DNA of 64,000 bases. It comes from Aureimonas frigidaquae. Lineage in GTDB: Bacteria; Pseudomonadota; Alphaproteobacteria; Rhizobiales; Rhizobiaceae. Below are positions 3,739 to 58,874 of this stretch, one piece after another. Below the pieces are notes generated by a model that saw nothing but the letters and a program-made list of their open reading frames with translations, made no database searches and had not been told where the DNA came from. Location: the NCBI RefSeq assembly GCF_001463905.1, contig NZ_BBWR01000009.1:1-64000 (forward strand), in the 5' to 3' direction. The position numbers and the translations under genes are program-made. Within the stretch, counting starts at the first letter, position 1; each line of letters begins with the position of its first letter.

Positions 3739-4745
3739 GGGCGCAGATCCTCCAGGATGGCCTGCGTTGCGGCGGCGGGCGCGGCCGGGCGCAGCCGTTC
3801 GCTGCGCGGCGTATGCCCGTAGCGACGGCGGTAGGCGGCGGAAAAATGGGCGGGGGATACGAAGCCGCAGGCAATCCCCACGGCCGTGATGCTGAGTTCG
3901 GACTGGCGCAGCAGATCGCGCGCATGGGCAAGCCGCAGCGACAGGTAGTATTCGGCCGGGCCGACGCCCGTATGCTGGCGGAACAGGCGTTCGAGCTGGC
4001 GGGACGACAGGCTGGCCCGCGCGGCGATGGCGGTGACGCTCATGGGCGCATCCACCGTCTTGCGCATCAGGTCGGCCGCAAGGTCCAGCGCCGGGTGGCC
4101 CTGGCCCTGCCGCGACAGGGGCTGCTGCTGGCTTTCGCCCTGGCCGCGCAGCCGCTCCAGGATGAACTGGCGGGCGAGCTTGTTCTTGACGCTCCGGCCG
4201 AGCCGGGCTTCCACCAGCGCGGCCATGAGGTCCATCGGCGCCGTTCCGCCCGTGCAGGTGACCCGGTCCCTGTCGATGACGAAGATATCCTCGACGAAAT
4301 GGACGTCCGGGAATTCCTCGGCGATGGCGGTGAGGTTCTCCCAGTGGATGGCGCAGCGGCGCCCGTCGAGAAGTCCGGCCTGCGCCAGGGCGAAACTGCC
4401 GGTGCACAGCGCGCCGAGCGTCTGGCCGCGCCGCGCCAGGCGGCGCAGTTCCTCGAGCAGGCGCTTGTCGATCGCATGGCGGATATCGAGCCCGCCGCAG
4501 ACGAACAGGATATCGGCCCGTGCCGCATCGGCCAGCGCCACGGTGCGCGCCAGGGACAAGCCGTTCGACGCCTCGACCGGGGCGCCCGACAGGCTGACGA
4601 CCTGCCACTCATAGACCGTCTCACCGGCCAGGTAATTGGCAATCCGGCACGCCTCGATGGCCGACATGGCGGCGACCATCGAATAGTTGGGCAGCGTCAG
4701 GAAGGCGAAGCTGCGCAATGCGGAAAGGTCGGGGGGCGCCGGCAT
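3735..4745 (-). CDS. gbdR: GlxA/GbdR-like AraC-family transcriptional regulator
   Basis: 336 residues: an N-terminal DJ-1/PfpI-like class I amidotransferase fold (about 10-175, with the GALCTGSFALA nucleophile-elbow region) and a C-terminal AraC helix-turn-helix pair (about 225-320). This is the architecture of GbdR, the glycine betaine/dimethylglycine-responsive activator. It lies inside the catabolic operon, 12 nt after gbcB and overlapping dgcA by 4 nt. It is therefore probably co-transcribed with its targets and may act on its own promoter upstream of gbcA. The GbdR assignment rests on architecture and position; CdhR-like carnitine sensing is the main alternative. Confidence 0.85.
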   Translation of the reverse strand: MPAPPDLSALRSFAFLTLPNYSMVAAMSAIEACRIANYLAGETVYEWQVVSLSGAPVEASNGLSLARTVALADAARADILFVCGGLDIRHAIDKRLLEELRRLARRGQTLGALCTGSFALAQAGLLDGRRCAIHWENLTAIAEEFPDVHFVEDIFVIDRDRVTCTGGTAPMDLMAALVEARLGRSVKNKLARQFILERLRGQGESQQQPLSRQGQGHPALDLAADLMRKTVDAPMSVTAIAARASLSSRQLERLFRQHTGVGPAEYYLSLRLAHARDLLRQSELSITAVGIACGFVSPAHFSAAYRRRYGHTPRSERLRPAAPAAATQAILEDLRP

Positions 4746-31029: not shown

Positions 31030-33276
31030 ATGCAGCACACCGTGCAGGATTCGCCGCAACAGGGCGGTGACATCCGCCAAGCCGCCGCGGCACATTTCAA
31101 TAGCGCGAATGCAGACTTCCGGGATGGTCGCTGGGAGGCCGCCTTGTCGGGCTTCGAAGCTGCCCTGGCGCTCGACGAAACGATGGAGCCCGCTGCGATC
31201 CAGGCCGCCCGCTGCCACGCCAATCGCGGCCAATGGCAGGCCGCGCGCGATGGGTTTGCGCGGGTGCTGATGATCAATCCCGCCAGCTACACCGCTTGGC
31301 TGGAAAGCGGCCATGCATGCCGCAGGCTCGGCCTGTTCGAGGATGCCGATCAGGCCTACCGACGCGCCGCAGGCCTTGCGCCGGAACGCCACGAAACCTT
31401 CGTCGCGCTGGCCCGGATCCTGGAGGAGTTCGGGCGCTTCCAGGACGCGGACGACGCCGTGGACAAGGCCGTGGCCGCGGCTGCCCGCACGTCGGCCCAG
31501 ACGGTCGCCACGGTGCATCGCATGATGGCGCGCTACCGGCTGGAGCAGAAGCTGCCGGACCGCGCGCTCGCATCGCTGGAGGCCGGCATCCGCGTGGCGG
31601 CCGAGAGCGCCGCTACGCTGGAAGAGCTGTGCGACTGGCAGGTGGAGCGCGGCTACGCGTTGATGCTGATGGGCGAGCATGCACGCGCTCACAAGGCCTT
31701 CGGCGCGGCCTCCGTCTCCACCCGGGAGGGGACGCTTCTGCGGCTGGCCGAGGTCAGCTACATGAACAATCTCTGGGAAGAGGCGGGCGAGGTGCTGCGC
31801 CGCTGCGTGGCCTTGCACCCGACGAGCGTATCCTCCCTGATGGCGCTGGCGCGCCATTGCTCGCATTGCTGGGACGTGGCGGAAGCGGAGCGGCTGCTGC
31901 AGCAGGTCGAGGCGCTCGGCTCGCATCCTGAGGTTCCCGGCATTCGTGCCAATGCCCGTATCCGCGGGGGCGATGCCGAAGAAGGATTGCGCCTTCTGAT
32001 CGACGAGGCCAAGGCGAACCACGATGGCGGGCGGGCCTGCTCGCGCGTGGCCATGACCTCCCTCTACAGCGACAGCTACTCCGCCGCCCAGATCCTGGAT
32101 CTGCACACATGGCTTTTCGAGCCGCTCGGCGTCAAAGCGCGGGAGCGGGCGTCCTTCCGGCGGGAACCCCTGGCCGGCCGGCGTATCCGCCTTGGCTTCA
32201 TCTCGGCGGATATGCACTATCAGCACCCGGTCAACATCTTCATGCAGCCCATCCTTCGGGAACTGGACCGATCCCGCTTCGAATGTTTCGTCTATGCCGC
32301 GGGTGGCCTGAACGACGACCAGACGCAACTGGCGCGCCAGCGTTCGGAACATTGGGTCGAGGTCGAGACCTGGACCGATGCGCAACTGGCTGCCCGGATC
32401 GAGCAGGACAAGATCGACATACTCGTCGATCTTCTCGGCCACACCGCCCATTCGCGCGGCATGATGCTGGGCCGTCGTGCCGCGCCCGTCCAGGTCAACT
32501 ATCTCGGCTATCCCGGAACGACGGGCATTCCGAACATGGACTGGCTGATCAGTGACGCGGTCGTCACACCGGATGGCGCCGAGCGCTACTATAGCGAGCG
32601 GGTGGCGCGCCTGCCCGGCACGGTCTTCTGCTTTGCGCCGGAGGAAGACTATCCGCTGCCGCCCATCACGCAGGAGATGGCCGAACGCCCGCTGACATTC
32701 GGCAGCGTCAACAACATCGCGAAATACAGCACCCGGACGCTCGGCCTGTACAAGCGCGTCCTCGACAGCGTTGAAGGCTCGCGCCTGTCGCTGCGTACGG
32801 CGAGTTTCTCGGACCCGCAGGCGACGGGCTTCTTCCGCGCGCGCCTCCAGGACCTCGGCTTCGACACGGAGCGCGTCTCGTTGCAGCCGCCGCTGGCACT
32901 TCCCCAAATGATGCGCGCCTACCGCGATATCGACATCGTCCTGGACGCGCATCCGTATAATGGCGGCACGACATCCCTCCAGGCGCTCTGGATGGGCGTT
33001 CCGGTCATCACGCTGGAGGGGCAGCAGTTCGTATCGCGCATGGGGACGAGCTTCCTGACGGCAGCCGGCCTTGCGGACTGGATCGCACCCGACGACGACG
33101 CCTATGTCGCCCTGGCGCAGGAGAAGGCGCGCGACCGGGCGGCACTGGTGACGCTGCGGCGCGAGCTGCGCCAACGGCTGCTGGCGCGCGACGCCTGGAA
33201 CCCGGTCATCCATACGCGCAACTTCGAAAAGGCGCTGATCGACATTTTGAAGGCCGAGGGCTACGCAACGGCCTGA
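31030..33276 (+). CDS. Second TPR / GT41 O-GlcNAc-transferase-like protein
   Basis: 748 residues, with a longer TPR array than its neighbour (about residues 15-330) followed by the GT41 catalytic region. Matching motifs are QHPVNIF, DILVDLLGHTAHSRG, NYLGYPGTTGIPNMDWLISD, GSVNNIAKYSTRTL and PYNGGTTSLQALWMGVPVI. It is clearly paralogous to the protein at 28567-30414. The shared block order suggests local duplication, while the TPR halves have diverged, so the two may recognise different acceptor proteins. It is 106 nt after the response regulator; separate transcription is possible. Confidence 0.91.
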   Translation: MQHTVQDSPQQGGDIRQAAAAHFNSANADFRDGRWEAALSGFEAALALDETMEPAAIQAARCHANRGQWQAARDGFARVLMINPASYTAWLESGHACRRLGLFEDADQAYRRAAGLAPERHETFVALARILEEFGRFQDADDAVDKAVAAAARTSAQTVATVHRMMARYRLEQKLPDRALASLEAGIRVAAESAATLEELCDWQVERGYALMLMGEHARAHKAFGAASVSTREGTLLRLAEVSYMNNLWEEAGEVLRRCVALHPTSVSSLMALARHCSHCWDVAEAERLLQQVEALGSHPEVPGIRANARIRGGDAEEGLRLLIDEAKANHDGGRACSRVAMTSLYSDSYSAAQILDLHTWLFEPLGVKARERASFRREPLAGRRIRLGFISADMHYQHPVNIFMQPILRELDRSRFECFVYAAGGLNDDQTQLARQRSEHWVEVETWTDAQLAARIEQDKIDILVDLLGHTAHSRGMMLGRRAAPVQVNYLGYPGTTGIPNMDWLISDAVVTPDGAERYYSERVARLPGTVFCFAPEEDYPLPPITQEMAERPLTFGSVNNIAKYSTRTLGLYKRVLDSVEGSRLSLRTASFSDPQATGFFRARLQDLGFDTERVSLQPPLALPQMMRAYRDIDIVLDAHPYNGGTTSLQALWMGVPVITLEGQQFVSRMGTSFLTAAGLADWIAPDDDAYVALAQEKARDRAALVTLRRELRQRLLARDAWNPVIHTRNFEKALIDILKAEGYATA

Positions 33277-33486
33277 GCGCCGGGGGGCATCCGGTGGCCC
33301 CCTGGGGGTCAGGCCCAAAGGCGGGTCGGTCGTCCGACTTCGCCGCCCTTGCAGGGCGATGACCTGGTGGTGATCATCCGGGCGCGCGACCTTTCGCAAA
33401 GCGGCTTGGCATTGCCGCACGCTTCGTCCATGGTGCGCCGCACCGCGGCGGATGGATCGTCAGGCGGGTAGGATCGGGAGCCGCGC

Positions 33487-49140: not shown

Positions 49141-50129
49141 GTGACGAACGGCATCTTCCGGTTCTGTTGTCCGAGGTGATGGCGGCCATGGCCCCCGCGC
49201 CCGGAGAGGTGATCCTGGACGGGACGTTCGGTGCCGGCGGCTACAGCCGCGCCCTGTTGGGTGCGGGTGCCCGGGTGATCGGCATGGACCGCGATCCGAC
49301 CGCCATTGCCGCAGCAGAGGCCATGGTCCGCGATTCTGCGGGGGCGCTGCGCCTTGTGGGCGACCGCTTTTCCACCATGGCCGACCATGTGGACGGCAGG
49401 ATCGACGGGGTCGTCCTCGATATCGGCGTGTCCTCCATGCAGATCGACACGCCCGAGCGCGGCTTTTCCTTCCAGAAGAACGGCCCCCTGGACATGCGGA
49501 TGGGGTCCGACGGGCCGACGGCCGCCGACGTCGTCAACCGGTTGAAGGTCGGCGATCTCGCACGGGTCCTGTCCTTTCTGGGCGAGGAGCGGCAGGCCGG
49601 GCGCATCGCGCGGGCCATCGATGCGCGGCGGGCGACGCACCCGTTCGAAACCACGTCCGACCTGGCGGAACTGGTCGGCCGCGTGCTGGGCCGCCGGCCA
49701 CAGGACCGGATCGACCCCGCCACCCGGACCTTCCAGGCGCTGCGCATCTACGTGAACGACGAGCTGGGGGAGCTCATGCGTGCGCTGGTGGCGGCAGAGG
49801 CCATTTTGAAGCCCGGTGGCCGGCTCGTGGTCGTCACCTTCCACTCGCTCGAGGATCGGATCGTGAAGCGCTTCCTGCGTGATCGGTCCCAGGCAGCGTC
49901 GCAATCCCGGCATTTACCGGATCTTAGCCATGAAGAGGCGACATTCGCCACGCGCAACAAGGCCGAGGGCGGCTCGGCAGAGGAAATCGCAGCCAATCCA
50001 CGGGCGCGTTCGGCCAAGCTGCGCGCGGCAGTGCGTACGACGGCCCCCGCGCCGACCGGTCCGCAGGCCTTTCGCTTCTTCGATCTTCCCGCCCTGGCGG
50101 AACTGCCGCAATCCGGAGCCCGACGCTGA
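49137..50129 (+). CDS. rsmH: 16S rRNA (cytosine(1402)-N(4))-methyltransferase RsmH
   Basis: 330 residues. Begins [11 protein letters not shown], then the SAM-binding [49 protein letters not shown] and [15 protein letters not shown]. It methylates C1402 of 16S rRNA; the gene is historically mraW. Overlaps mraZ by 4 nt, and its TGA shares a base with the ftsL ATG. Confidence 0.98.
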
Positions 50130-50485
50130 TGCACAAGACACTGGACATCATTCTCGTCGTCATCATGCTCGCGGCCGCGACATGGACCTTCGGCGTCAAG
50201 CACGAGGCGGAATCGATCGAGGAGCGCCTGCGCGTCGTCGAGCGCGATATCGCCATGGAGCGGGATACGATCTCGCTGCTGGAAGCCGACTGGAGCCTGT
50301 TGAACCAGCCCTATCGTCTGCAGCGTCTGGCCGACACTTTCGCTGAAGAGCTGCAGCTCAAGCCGATCGTTCCCCGCCAGATCGTCACGCCCGCGGATCT
50401 GCCGTCCGAGCCGGTCCCGGTTGTGCCGGAAGAGCCGCTCGCCACCGGCAACCTTGCCGCCAATGCGGCGGGCGTGTTGAGATGA
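50129..50485 (+). CDS. ftsL: Cell division protein FtsL
   Basis: 118 residues. A short cytosolic start, one transmembrane helix (IILVVIMLAAATWTFGV, about 8-24), then a periplasmic coiled-coil-like stretch (ESIEERLRVVERDIAMERDTI) and a Pro-rich tail. FtsL with FtsB and FtsQ activates the FtsW-FtsI septal synthase. Position between rsmH and ftsI is diagnostic. Overlaps ftsI by 4 nt. Confidence 0.93.
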   Translation: MHKTLDIILVVIMLAAATWTFGVKHEAESIEERLRVVERDIAMERDTISLLEADWSLLNQPYRLQRLADTFAEELQLKPIVPRQIVTPADLPSEPVPVVPEEPLATGNLAANAAGVLR

Positions 50486-52212
50486 GCGGCACCCCGCACC
50501 ATCCCCTGCCAGAGAAGGAAGGCTCCCGCCTGCGCCGCGGCGCCCGGCGCGTCGCAAGACTCCGCCGCCATCCGGCGGGCGAGGCGCCGCCAAGCAACAA
50601 GCCGCGCTTCGCCATCGCCATGCTGGCCTTTTGCGGCGTCTATGCCGTGATCGGCGGCCGCCTCGTCACCTGGGGTGCGGTGGAGGGGGCAGAGCCTTCT
50701 GCGGCGCGCCCGGCGCAGGAAGCGGCCGCGCCGCGGCCGACGCTTCTGGATCGGAACGGGCGGCTTCTGGCCACCGACATCCGCACCGCATCGCTCTATG
50801 CGCAGCCGGCCCGGATCGGCGATCCGGCCCGCGCGGCGGAGCTCATCGCCAGCGTCCTGCCGGAAGTCGATCCGGCGAGGCTTGCGGCGCAATTGTCGAA
50901 GGGCGGGGACCTCATCTGGCTGAAGCGCAACGTGGCGCCGGCGCAGATGCAGGCCATCCTGGCACTGAACGTCGAGGGTGTCGGGGTGGATACCGACCGC
51001 AGCCGCTACTATCCGGGCGGCAGCACCGCGGCGCATGTGGTCGGCCATGTGGACGATACCAATCGCGGCATGGCGGGCATGGAGCAATATGTCGATGCCG
51101 CCATCGGCCATGCGCAGGCCGTTGGCCGCAGCGCGCCGCAGGATATCCGCCTGTCGCTGGACCTTCGGGTCCAGCACGCGCTGCGGGACGAACTCGCCGG
51201 TGCCATGCGGCGCTACGAGGCGGCGGCAGCCGGCGGCATCGTGCTCGATGCGACGACGGGCGAAGTCGTCGCCATGGCGTCGCTGCCGGACTACGATCCC
51301 AACCATCCGGTCCAGGCGCGGCAGCCCGATCGGTACAATCGCATGACGGCAGAGGCCACGGAGCTGGGCACCACGGCCACCACCTTCACCACGGCCATGG
51401 CGCTCGACAGCGGCAAGGTGGACCTGTCCGACGCCTTCGATGCGCAGGGGCCGGTCAGCCTCGGCAACATGATGCTCACCGCAAGCCATGGCGCAAGTGC
51501 GGTCCGCAGCCGGGCCATGACGGTGCCCGAAATCTTCGTCTATTCTTCCGCGGCCGGTGCGGCGCAGGAGGCCAAGGCCGTTGGGCCGGCCGGGCATGGC
51601 GCCTTCCTGGCCAAGCTCGGCCTGACGACGCAGCTGCGCACCGAACTGCCCGAACTCGCCGCGCCGCGGGCGCCGTCGCAGTGGACGGAACTGTCCTCGC
51701 TCACGGCCTCGATCGGGCGGGGCATTGCGACCACACCGTTGCAGACGGCCGCCGCCGCTGCCGCCCTGTTGAATGGCGGCTACCTGGTAACGCCGACTTT
51801 CCTGCCGCGCTCCGAACGCACGGCAGAGGTGCTGAAGCGCCGCGTGGTCAGCGCGGAAACCTCGGCGCGCATGCGCTACCTCTTTGCGACCAACGCCGCC
51901 CATGGCTCGGGCAAGGCTTCGCTGGTCGAGGGGCTCGACGTCGGCGGTCAGACGGGAACGCTGGCCGACGGTGCGTCCGCGACCGGCAAGGCGCAAAGCA
52001 CCTCCTATCTGGCGGCCTTCCCCATGCACGATCCGCGCTACGTGGTGCTCGTCATGCTGGACGCGCCCAAGCCCGCAGCCGGAGAGGCGCATGCCACGGC
52101 GGCCTGGAACGCGGCCCCGACGGCCGGCGCCATCATCGCGCGGACAGCCGGCTTCCTGGGCGTCGAGCCGGAAACGCCGAAGGACAAAAAACAGCTTCTG
52201 GTGAGTTACTGA
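50482..52212 (+). CDS. ftsI: FtsI / PBP3-type septal transpeptidase with all three catalytic motifs lost (probable pseudoenzyme)
   Basis: 576 residues, usual length. Cytosolic basic N-terminus, one transmembrane helix (about 42-63), a PBP dimer domain (RPTLLDRNGRLLATDIR at 85-101; GGSTAAHVVGHVD), then the transpeptidase fold (about 225-560). In place of SxxK at 297-300 is T-T-A-T, in place of SxN at 355-357 S-S-A, and in place of KTG at 490-492 Q-T-G. The usual FGHG near 411-414 reads IGRG. Flanking residues remain conserved (FTTAMALDSGKV after the first, VGG before and TGT at the third, AAFP-DPRYVVLVMLD after it). With no acyl-serine or catalytic lysines it should neither crosslink peptidoglycan nor bind beta-lactam. 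The frame is intact and coupled to ftsL (ATGA), so this is not simple decay. A structural or FtsW-activating role is inference. Confidence 0.93.
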   Translation: MSGTPHHPLPEKEGSRLRRGARRVARLRRHPAGEAPPSNKPRFAIAMLAFCGVYAVIGGRLVTWGAVEGAEPSAARPAQEAAAPRPTLLDRNGRLLATDIRTASLYAQPARIGDPARAAELIASVLPEVDPARLAAQLSKGGDLIWLKRNVAPAQMQAILALNVEGVGVDTDRSRYYPGGSTAAHVVGHVDDTNRGMAGMEQYVDAAIGHAQAVGRSAPQDIRLSLDLRVQHALRDELAGAMRRYEAAAAGGIVLDATTGEVVAMASLPDYDPNHPVQARQPDRYNRMTAEATELGTTATTFTTAMALDSGKVDLSDAFDAQGPVSLGNMMLTASHGASAVRSRAMTVPEIFVYSSAAGAAQEAKAVGPAGHGAFLAKLGLTTQLRTELPELAAPRAPSQWTELSSLTASIGRGIATTPLQTAAAAAALLNGGYLVTPTFLPRSERTAEVLKRRVVSAETSARMRYLFATNAAHGSGKASLVEGLDVGGQTGTLADGASATGKAQSTSYLAAFPMHDPRYVVLVMLDAPKPAAGEAHATAAWNAAPTAGAIIARTAGFLGVEPETPKDKKQLLVSY

Positions 52213-57704: not shown

Positions 57705-58874
57705 ATGGCCGTGAGCCGCGCAAAGAAGGGGCTGATCGCCGACTGGTGGTGGTCGATCGACCGCTGGTTGCTCGCTGCCTTCCTCATCCTGATGCTGGGG
57801 GGCATGATGCTGTCCTTCGCGGCCAGCCCGCCCGTGGCCGAGCGCATCGGGCTGGAGCCGTTCCACTTCGTCAAGCGGCATGCCGTCTTCCTGATTCCCT
57901 CCATCGCGGCCATGCTCGCCACCTCGCTGCTCACGCCGCATGGCATCCGCCGCATGTCGCTGATCATGCTCGTCATGGCGCTGGTGACCATGGTCCTGGC
58001 GCTCTTCTTCGGCATGGAGGTCAAGGGCGCCCGCCGCTGGATGTATTTCGGCCCCTTCGGCGTGCAGCCGTCCGAATTCATGAAGCCGGCCTTCGTCGTG
58101 GTCTGCGCCTGGCTCTTCGCCGAGCGGGCGCGCCGGCCCGACGTGCCCGGCAATCTGCTTTCGCTGATCCTTCTGATCGTGGTGGCGGCGCTGCTCGTGG
58201 CCCAGCCAGACCTTGGCCAGACGATCCTGACGGCCGGCGCCTGGGGCGGCCTGTTCTTCATGGCCGGCATGCCCTGGCTGTGGATCGTGGCGCTCGGCTC
58301 GGTGGCCGGCGTCGGCTTCTTCGGCGCCTACCTGACCTTCAGCCACGTGGCGAGCCGCATCGACCGCTTCCTGACCGGAGAGGGCGATACGTTCCAGACC
58401 GATACGGCGCGCGAGGCGATCATGCGTGGCGGCTGGTTCGGGCAGGGGCCGGGCGAGGGCACCGTCAAGCGCATCCTGCCGGACAGCCACACCGACTTCG
58501 CCTTCTCGGTCATTGCCGAGGAGTTCGGCATCGTCACCTGCATGCTGCTCGCGGCGGTGTTCTGCTTCGTGGTCGTGCGCGGGCTGCAGGTCGCCTTCCA
58601 GCAGCGCGATGCCTTCACGCGGCTTGCCATTTCCGGCCTCGTCATGATGTTCGGCATGCAATCCATCATCAACATGGCGGTGAACCTGCAGCTCATGCCG
58701 GCCAAGGGCATGACGCTGCCCTTCATCTCCTATGGCGGGTCGTCCATGCTGGCCGTCGCGATCTCGGCAGGTTTCGTCCTGGCGCTGACGCGCAAGCGGG
58801 CCGAGAACTCGTCCCAGACCGACCGGCTCATGACGCGCACGCTCGCGCTCAACACCGCGCTCGATGCGCGCTGA
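57705..58874 (+). CDS. ftsW: Septal peptidoglycan glycosyltransferase FtsW (SEDS family)
   Basis: 389 residues, ten transmembrane segments expected. SEDS landmarks are intact: [34 protein letters not shown], and the catalytic-region [15 protein letters not shown] with its Asp, and [10 protein letters not shown]. It polymerises lipid II at the septum and normally works as a complex with FtsI. Here the adjacent ftsI product lacks transpeptidase residues while FtsW keeps its own. Confidence 0.97.

What the first reader, a model, noticed from the sequence alone, without database searches (positions are those of the whole stretch)
57705..58874. FtsW keeps its SEDS active site although its cognate FtsI is apparently dead
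FtsW and FtsI work as a glycosyltransferase-transpeptidase pair. Here FtsW retains the catalytic-region [13 protein letters not shown] and the other SEDS landmarks, so only the transpeptidase half appears lost. That would make a natural separation of the two activities of the septal synthase, useful for asking whether FtsI is needed structurally.
Basis: partly seen in the sequence, partly recalled or inferred. Interest (0 to 1): 0.6.

Follow-up and report, generated by a model that had tools for sequence, protein, structure and literature searches.

The report
Dead septal transpeptidase beside intact FtsW
In this Aureimonas-like bacterium the cell-division transpeptidase FtsI encoded near FtsW has lost its catalytic residues yet still looks maintained, the same seems to have happened independently in two relatives, and intact spare copies elsewhere in these genomes probably do the cross-linking, so nature may have split the two jobs of the septal wall synthase.

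Summary
FtsW (57705-58874) is an ordinary, intact SEDS protein: Asp264 in LPDSHTDF, and 170 of 170 conserved columns kept. The dcw-encoded FtsI (50482-52212) has lost all three transpeptidase motifs (SxxK→TTAT, SxN→SSA, KTG→QTG); 78 of 78 live dcw rows keep STFK/SSN/KTGT. The reading is only half right. Transpeptidase activity need not be lost from the cell: the genome encodes two further FtsI-like class B proteins with intact motifs (contigs C8, C11), and one SEDS protein. C8 evolves about as slowly as FtsW. I found two more dead dcw FtsIs: Mangrovicella endophytica (STFS/SSA/KTAT) and Aureimonas genome G007 (in-frame loss of about 100 residues holding SxxK and SxN; KTGT→RAQV). They lie on separate branches among live relatives, each with an intact spare copy, so three independent losses is the simplest account. 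The dead genes stay in frame, show dN/dS of about 0.10-0.20 where estimable, and keep the FtsW-docking transmembrane helix; two are predicted to fold like class B PBPs. Most likely the dead FtsI persists as a structural activator of FtsW, as engineered dead PBP2B does in B. subtilis, while an orphan paralogue cross-links. A decaying vestige remains the main rival.

The parts
50129..50485 (+). ftsL; its stop codon overlaps the ftsI start (ATGA)
   Evidence: NCBIfam NF049847 FtsL 101.2 bits; overlap read; 19 of 19 conserved columns kept
50482..52212 (+). dcw-encoded ftsI (PBP3-like class B PBP) with all three catalytic motifs destroyed
   Evidence: PF00905 and PF03717; motif losses; AF2 mean pLDDT 82.4; match to P. 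aeruginosa PBP3, Z 52.8
50593..50673 (+). FtsI transmembrane helix (residues 38-64, core FCGVYAVIGGRL), relatively well kept in the dead FtsIs
50722..51126 (+). FtsI pedestal domain (PBP_dimer region, residues 81-215)
   Evidence: PF03717; 38 of 53 conserved columns kept
51370..51381 (+). former SxxK motif, now TTAT (Ser297 to Thr, Lys300 to Thr)
51544..51552 (+). former SxN motif, now SSA (Asn357 to Ala)
51949..51960 (+). former KTGT motif, now QTGT (Lys490 to Gln)
52195..52209 (+). C-terminal LLVSY, present in all three dead dcw FtsIs and not in C8 or C11
57705..58874 (+). ftsW, intact; the only SEDS gene found in this genome
58485..58523 (+). FtsW catalytic-region [13 protein letters not shown], catalytic Asp264 at 58494-58496

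Best explanation
The dcw FtsI is a natural pseudoenzyme. It stays in the divisome as the transmembrane partner and activator of the only SEDS glycosyltransferase found, FtsW, but cannot cross-link. D,D-transpeptidation at the septum is supplied by an orphan class B paralogue (in this genome most likely C8, perhaps also C11). Shown here: motif loss, intact paralogues, a single SEDS protein, two more dead cases on separate branches, conserved FtsW, kept transmembrane helix, predicted fold, and average purifying selection over the branch. Inferred: that the protein is expressed, binds and activates FtsW, and that a paralogue works at the septum.
For: All three motifs lost while 78 of 78 live rows keep them. 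Two further FtsI-like class B proteins with intact motifs, with pedestal and transpeptidase domains, encoded among unrelated genes. One SEDS protein. Two more dead dcw FtsIs on separate branches, each in a genome with an intact spare class B copy. C8 and C11 each pair with an A. altamirensis copy (100/100), so they predate that split, and A. altamirensis still has a live dcw FtsI. C8 is 444/480 (93%) identical to its A. altamirensis counterpart in the ectodomain while dcw FtsI is 273/476 (57%) and FtsW 93%. dN/dS on the dead branch 0.155 (TM+pedestal) and 0.120 (transpeptidase); w=1 rejected, 2dL 10.8 and 49.7; G007 0.201 and 0.125, 2dL 19.1 and 34.3; Mangrovicella transpeptidase part 0.098, 2dL 67.2. 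Mean transmembrane-minus-ectodomain identity is positive in 3 of 3 dead rows and negative in 33 of 33 live rows. Predicted fold intact. Precedents: dead PBP2B supports B. subtilis division because PBP3 supplies transpeptidation (as told in PMC12713402 and PMC8078798, passages); A. tumefaciens PBP3a and PBP3b both serve septation (PMC8546619, passages).
Against: The dead FtsIs have end branches 4.4 to 7.5 times those of the other dcw proteins (1.12 against 0.15 here). In this protein the pedestal keeps only 38 of 53 conserved columns, against 70 of 85 in the transpeptidase domain outside the motifs. The selection test averages over the whole branch, part of which may predate inactivation, and synonymous change is large (1.3-1.7 changes per codon on this branch). 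The transmembrane signal rests on 27 residues, single pairs are not significant (p 0.11-0.84) and one of seven dead pairs runs the other way. Each dead lineage is a single genome, so maintenance after death is not shown directly. In S. [quoted passage not shown] No expression or binding data.
Confidence: 0.6

Rival explanations
1. The dcw FtsI is a vestige in slow decay. FtsW has switched to the orphan paralogue as its full partner (activator and cross-linker), and the dead copy does little or nothing.
For: Fast evolution of the periplasmic part including the pedestal; a slowly evolving intact paralogue with its own pedestal; in A. tumefaciens a pbp3a deletion can be made in minimal medium, with severe defects, and loss of both PBP3a and PBP3b stops division (PMC8546619, passages); G007 has lost about 100 residues of the domain.
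Against: In frame without stops in three lineages; w=1 rejected on the dead branches; GC by codon position 0.71/0.55/0.85, like A. altamirensis 0.69/0.51/0.85; transmembrane helix and LLVSY end kept while the transmembrane helices of C11 and of G007's spare copy drift.
Confidence: 0.27
2. The dead FtsI is a regulator or decoy in a different way: it forms a complex with the active paralogue or holds FtsQLB, restraining or timing the septal synthase rather than activating FtsW.
For: C. difficile PBP3 promotes asymmetric division independently of its catalytic activity and interacts with another class B PBP (PMC12713402, abstract and passages); pedestal divergence could mean a changed partner.
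Against: No specific sequence evidence; the transmembrane core is unchanged, pointing to the old partner.
Confidence: 0.09
3. The protein is still a transpeptidase with altered chemistry (Thr297 as nucleophile).
For: Thr at the serine position, and Ser355 kept; the transpeptidase domain is predicted to fold.
Against: The SxxK lysine, the SxN asparagine and the KTG lysine are all replaced; in Mangrovicella the serine stays but the SxxK lysine, the SxN asparagine and the KTG glycine go; G007 has lost SxxK and SxN altogether.
Confidence: 0.03

Closest known systems
Bacillus subtilis PBP2B / PBP3 (engineered catalytic mutant of PBP2B)
   Same: A catalytically dead FtsI homologue still supports division and its gene is essential, while a second class B PBP supplies transpeptidation (told in PMC12713402 and PMC8078798, passages read; the original paper was not read).
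   Different: There the dead allele is engineered and the wild-type gene is active; here the wild-type gene itself looks dead, in three natural alphaproteobacterial lineages.
Agrobacterium tumefaciens PBP3a (dcw) and PBP3b (orphan)
   Same: Two FtsI-like class B proteins serve one division FtsW; the second gene lies alone elsewhere (PMC8546619, passages read). Same order of bacteria (recalled).
   Different: There PBP3a in dcw is the main active enzyme and pbp3b deletion has no effect on viability or cell length; here the dcw copy is dead and the spare copies are intact.
FtsWI of Pseudomonas aeruginosa (8BH1, 8P1U)
   Same: FtsW aligns to these chains and FtsI by sequence and predicted fold; FtsI binds FtsW mainly by its transmembrane helix (PMC10764723, main text read).
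   Different: P. aeruginosa FtsI is an active enzyme (solved with bound beta-lactams, titles).
Clostridioides difficile SpoVD / PBP3
   Same: Catalysis-independent role of a class B PBP in septum synthesis (PMC12713402, abstract and passages).
   Different: Sporulation proteins; point mutants made in the laboratory.

Membership tests
FtsI / PBP3 as an active D,D-transpeptidase | SxxK active-site motif | tested here: not met
   TTAT in the window; 78 of 78 live rows STFK
FtsI / PBP3 as an active D,D-transpeptidase | SxN motif | tested here: not met
   SSA; 78 of 78 live rows SSN
FtsI / PBP3 as an active D,D-transpeptidase | KTG motif | tested here: not met
   QTGT; 78 of 78 live rows KTGT
FtsI / PBP3 as a protein family (descent) | PBP_dimer plus Transpeptidase domains, class B fold | tested here: met
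   PF03717 50.1 bits, PF00905 141 bits; model Z 52.8, rmsd 3.8 over 470 residues to 7auh, P. aeruginosa PBP3
FtsI / PBP3 as a protein family (descent) | Position between ftsL and murE in dcw, grouping with dcw FtsIs | tested here: met
   groups with A. altamirensis dcw FtsI, support 98/97
FtsI / PBP3 as structural partner of FtsW | N-terminal transmembrane helix retained | tested here: met
   Helix 40-65 in the model; core FCGVYAVIGGRL identical to A. altamirensis
FtsI / PBP3 as structural partner of FtsW | Pedestal surface that activates FtsW retained | tested here: inconclusive
   38 of 53 conserved pedestal columns kept; live A. altamirensis keeps 43-44; the interface residues themselves were not mapped (one search gave no full-length match)
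FtsI / PBP3 as structural partner of FtsW | Binds and activates FtsW | not testable with these tools
FtsW (SEDS glycosyltransferase) | Catalytic Asp of the HTDF motif and conserved columns | tested here: met
   Asp264; 170 of 170 conserved columns
FtsW (SEDS glycosyltransferase) | FTSW_RODA_SPOVE domain over curated cut-off | tested here: met
   248.6 bits against 26.4; the narrower NCBIfam ftsW model gives 336.1 against 337.5, just under
PBP3b-like class B paralogue (C8, C11) | Intact SxxK, SxN, KTG | tested here: met
   GSTFK, SSN, KTGT in both
PBP3b-like class B paralogue (C8, C11) | Encoded alone outside dcw | tested here: met
   The neighbouring ORFs scanned (7 and 8) gave no cell-division family
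PBP3b-like class B paralogue (C8, C11) | Common descent with A. tumefaciens PBP3b | tested here: inconclusive
   Clade with a second S. meliloti copy, 100/100, but with a long-branch warning; the A. tumefaciens protein itself was not included

The most novel reading that the evidence does not exclude
In Aurantimonadaceae the dcw FtsI has been turned repeatedly, by selection, into a non-catalytic activator subunit of FtsW, with septal cross-linking handed to a separately encoded class B PBP (of two different origins among the three cases). That would be a naturally split septal synthase in which polymerase activation and transpeptidation reside in two different FtsI proteins.
Probability: 0.45. 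Interest if true: 0.75.

Novelty: new variant of a known kind. Interest (0 to 1): 0.6.

Why it matters
Whether FtsI is needed as a structural activator apart from its chemistry has been asked with engineered mutants. Three natural losses on separate branches, among live relatives, give a ready comparison set: residues kept in all dead copies hint at what FtsW and FtsQLB need, residues lost at what only catalysis needs. If the dcw FtsI is truly dead, the septal target of beta-lactams in these cells must be another protein.

Tried and rejected
Assembly or sequencing error: rejected, since the losses are several in-frame codon changes at three sites and loss of these motifs recurs in other genomes.

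One ancestral loss: rejected, since live dcw FtsIs surround the dead ones in a tree of seven other dcw proteins.

Apparent further oddities from pattern matching (L091 GETGS; no KTG in L145, L146, L150) were misreadings; in the alignment all 78 live rows read KTGT. L086 (gene cut by the contig) and L137 (short) were dropped before that count; L086 showed STFK and SSN, L137 all three motifs.

Wider screen: 393 genomes of the GTDB family, best score against S. meliloti FtsI. The window genome (3.9e-159) and G007 (1.1e-154) stand out as low, as they should. Of the other low scorers I re-examined G410, G412, G122, G141, G153, G075 and G234, with G193, G362 and G180 as comparisons: G410 and G122 are split over contigs, G412 is broken in frame but its pieces carry EMGSTFK, SSN and KTGT, and the four small genomes read SIMK, STIK, SVIK and SILK with SSN and KTGT. 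No new dead case.

Association of death with a spare copy: 2 of 10 genus genomes with a spare against 0 of 11 without, p=0.21, not significant.

Codon model: the Mangrovicella TM+pedestal estimate hit the upper bound on branch length (12.2) and is not used. On the five usable dead-branch estimates w is above background but not significantly (2dL 1.0 to 3.4), and one live control branch (L084, transpeptidase part, w 0.169) is higher than the dead branches there.

Mapping P. aeruginosa interface residues by a short query failed: full-length FtsI chains did not match.

The other four PF00905 proteins of the genome (L004-L007) did not match FtsI at E <= 1e-10 (three matches in G000) and were not classified; L004 and L006 were read on the wrong strand, and one search did not resolve them.

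Literature: no paper in the held library holds FtsI + pseudoenzyme + transpeptidase + cell division or Aureimonas + FtsI; further searches searches listed no such case. This covers only the open-licence PMC set.

Full report
What is there. The window carries an alphaproteobacterial dcw cluster on the + strand: mraZ, mraW, ftsL, ftsI, murE, murF, mraY, murD, ftsW, murG, murC, murB, ddl and the start of ftsQ (ORFs; only ftsL, ftsI and ftsW were tested against families, the other names are my reading of the translations). The nearest named FtsW proteins are from Aureimonas altamirensis, 93% identical. The genome held (G000) is 4.1 Mb, 99.99% complete.

FtsW is ordinary. It matches PF01098 and aligns over residues 18-365 of 389 with P. 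aeruginosa FtsW. Asp264 of LPDSHTDF is the catalytic residue by alignment with P. aeruginosa Asp275 (its role as told in PMC10764723). Of 170 columns conserved in at least 95% of 80 other FtsW rows (all rows but the three of dead-FtsI genomes), the window protein keeps 170, Mangrovicella 170 and G007 165. It is the only SEDS protein found in the genome; one each was found in G007, Mangrovicella and three comparison genomes.

FtsI is dead by sequence. All three motifs are lost: Ser297 to Thr and Lys300 to Thr, Asn357 to Ala, Lys490 to Gln. In 78 of 78 live dcw rows they read STFK, SSN, KTGT. In the 21 genus genomes the copy nearest to the window's FtsI is intact in 19 and dead in two, G000 and G007 (dcw context was read for G000, G007 and G003 and for the named loci, not for every genus genome).

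Two more cases. Mangrovicella endophytica reads STFS, SSA, KTAT. G007 has an in-frame loss of about 100 residues (window residues 288 to about 388) holding SxxK and SxN, and RAQV for KTGT. In a tree of seven other dcw proteins the window strain sits with A. altamirensis, G007 with G003 (both 100/100) and Mangrovicella apart from both; A. altamirensis and G003 are live. Three separate losses is the simplest account.

The cell still has FtsI-type transpeptidases. Seven PF00905 proteins are encoded; two besides the dcw copy are FtsI-like class B proteins with GSTFK, SSN and KTGT, encoded among unrelated genes. They form a clade with G007's spare copy and a second S. meliloti copy (100/100, with a long-branch warning). 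Mangrovicella's spare is of another origin: it falls among Aureimonas dcw FtsIs (100/99), so it was probably acquired. Spare class B copies are common and usually coexist with a live dcw FtsI: 10 of 21 genus genomes and 16 of 33 genomes reached through named loci (the two sets overlap, and 2 of the 35 loci asked for were not held) have at least one, so a spare copy may permit but does not by itself cause the loss. Ten YkuD L,D-transpeptidase matches are also present.

Who does the work now. Between the window strain and A. altamirensis, C8 is 93% identical in the ectodomain and C11 87%, but the dcw FtsI 57%; FtsW is 93%. C8 therefore evolves like an essential division enzyme, and the dcw FtsI does not. 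A. altamirensis (G012, the same places as in L071's genome) has partners of both spare copies and still a live dcw FtsI, so the spares came first. Its dcw FtsI also has a lengthened stem (0.33 against 0.093 in the other dcw proteins), as if constraint eased before catalysis was lost in the sister.

Is the dead gene maintained? For: the frame is open, the ftsL-ftsI overlap is there, GC by codon position is normal, and a branch codon model that I wrote gives w 0.155 and 0.120 on the dead branch with w=1 rejected (2dL 10.8 and 49.7); G007 0.201 and 0.125 (2dL 19.1 and 34.3), Mangrovicella transpeptidase part 0.098 (2dL 67.2). Live control branches of FtsI gave 0.017 to 0.169. AlphaFold2 gives mean pLDDT 82.4 here and 83.9 for Mangrovicella, and the window model matches P. 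aeruginosa PBP3; the predictions used live relatives in their alignment, so they show compatibility with the fold, not proof of folding. Against: the end branches are 4.4 to 7.5 times those of the other dcw proteins, and the test averages over time before and after inactivation.

Where constraint remains. Comparing identity in the transmembrane helix (27 residues) with that in the ectodomain, each of 33 live Aurantimonadaceae rows has a lower transmembrane identity on average (-0.20 to -0.03), while all three dead rows are positive (+0.088, +0.026, +0.004); they are the top three of 36. Spare copies go the other way in C11 (-0.46) and G007's copy (-0.37, -0.30), and C8 is near level (-0.04). 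So the extra change in dead FtsIs fell more on the periplasmic part than on the helix that docks to FtsW (the main FtsW contact in PMC10764723). Single comparisons of dead pairs are not significant (p 0.11 to 0.84), and one of seven is negative (Mangrovicella against L081, -0.05). The pedestal gives a mixed picture: G007 keeps 48 of 53 conserved columns, Mangrovicella 42, the window protein 38; live A. altamirensis also dropped to 43-44. Li et al. place the activation surface at the pedestal-ECL4 contact (PMC8078798, passages), so the pedestal loss here counts against full retention of the activator role.

Reading. The best-supported account is a divided septal synthase: dead dcw FtsI as docking and activating subunit of FtsW, orphan paralogue as cross-linker. 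This would be the natural counterpart of the engineered B. subtilis PBP2B/PBP3 case (as told in PMC12713402 and PMC8078798) and would use a redundancy like that of PBP3a/PBP3b in A. tumefaciens (PMC8546619). S. aureus gives a mixed precedent: PMC8078798 tells that a transpeptidase mutant of PBP1 did not block division, whereas the abstract of PMC9426605 calls that activity essential and a section title there limits this to MSSA, and the abstract of PMC7617827 says that PBP2a cannot replace PBP1's activity. A vestige in decay is the main rival.

Noticed in passing
L075 (Mangrovicella endophytica) 3813-4424: A 203-aa ORF lies between the dead ftsI and murE, where the window has only about 90 bases; not identified.
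   Followed up: no
A. altamirensis dcw ftsI (L071, L072): Motifs intact, but 9-10 of 53 conserved pedestal columns are changed and the stem branch is long, as if constraint eased before catalysis is lost.
   Followed up: partly
G412 dcw-type ftsI (L220, L230): The gene is split into two frames in a single-contig genome and no second full copy was found by the FtsI query; real frameshift or sequencing error not decided.
   Followed up: partly
window 33255-33352: ARAGORN calls a tRNA of undetermined type with a four-base anticodon (ccgg); perhaps a false positive.
   Followed up: no
G041 C24:77249-78814 (L210): Mangrovicella's spare FtsI groups with Aureimonas dcw FtsIs and with spare copies of three Jiella species, suggesting transfer of an FtsI gene within the family.
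   Followed up: partly
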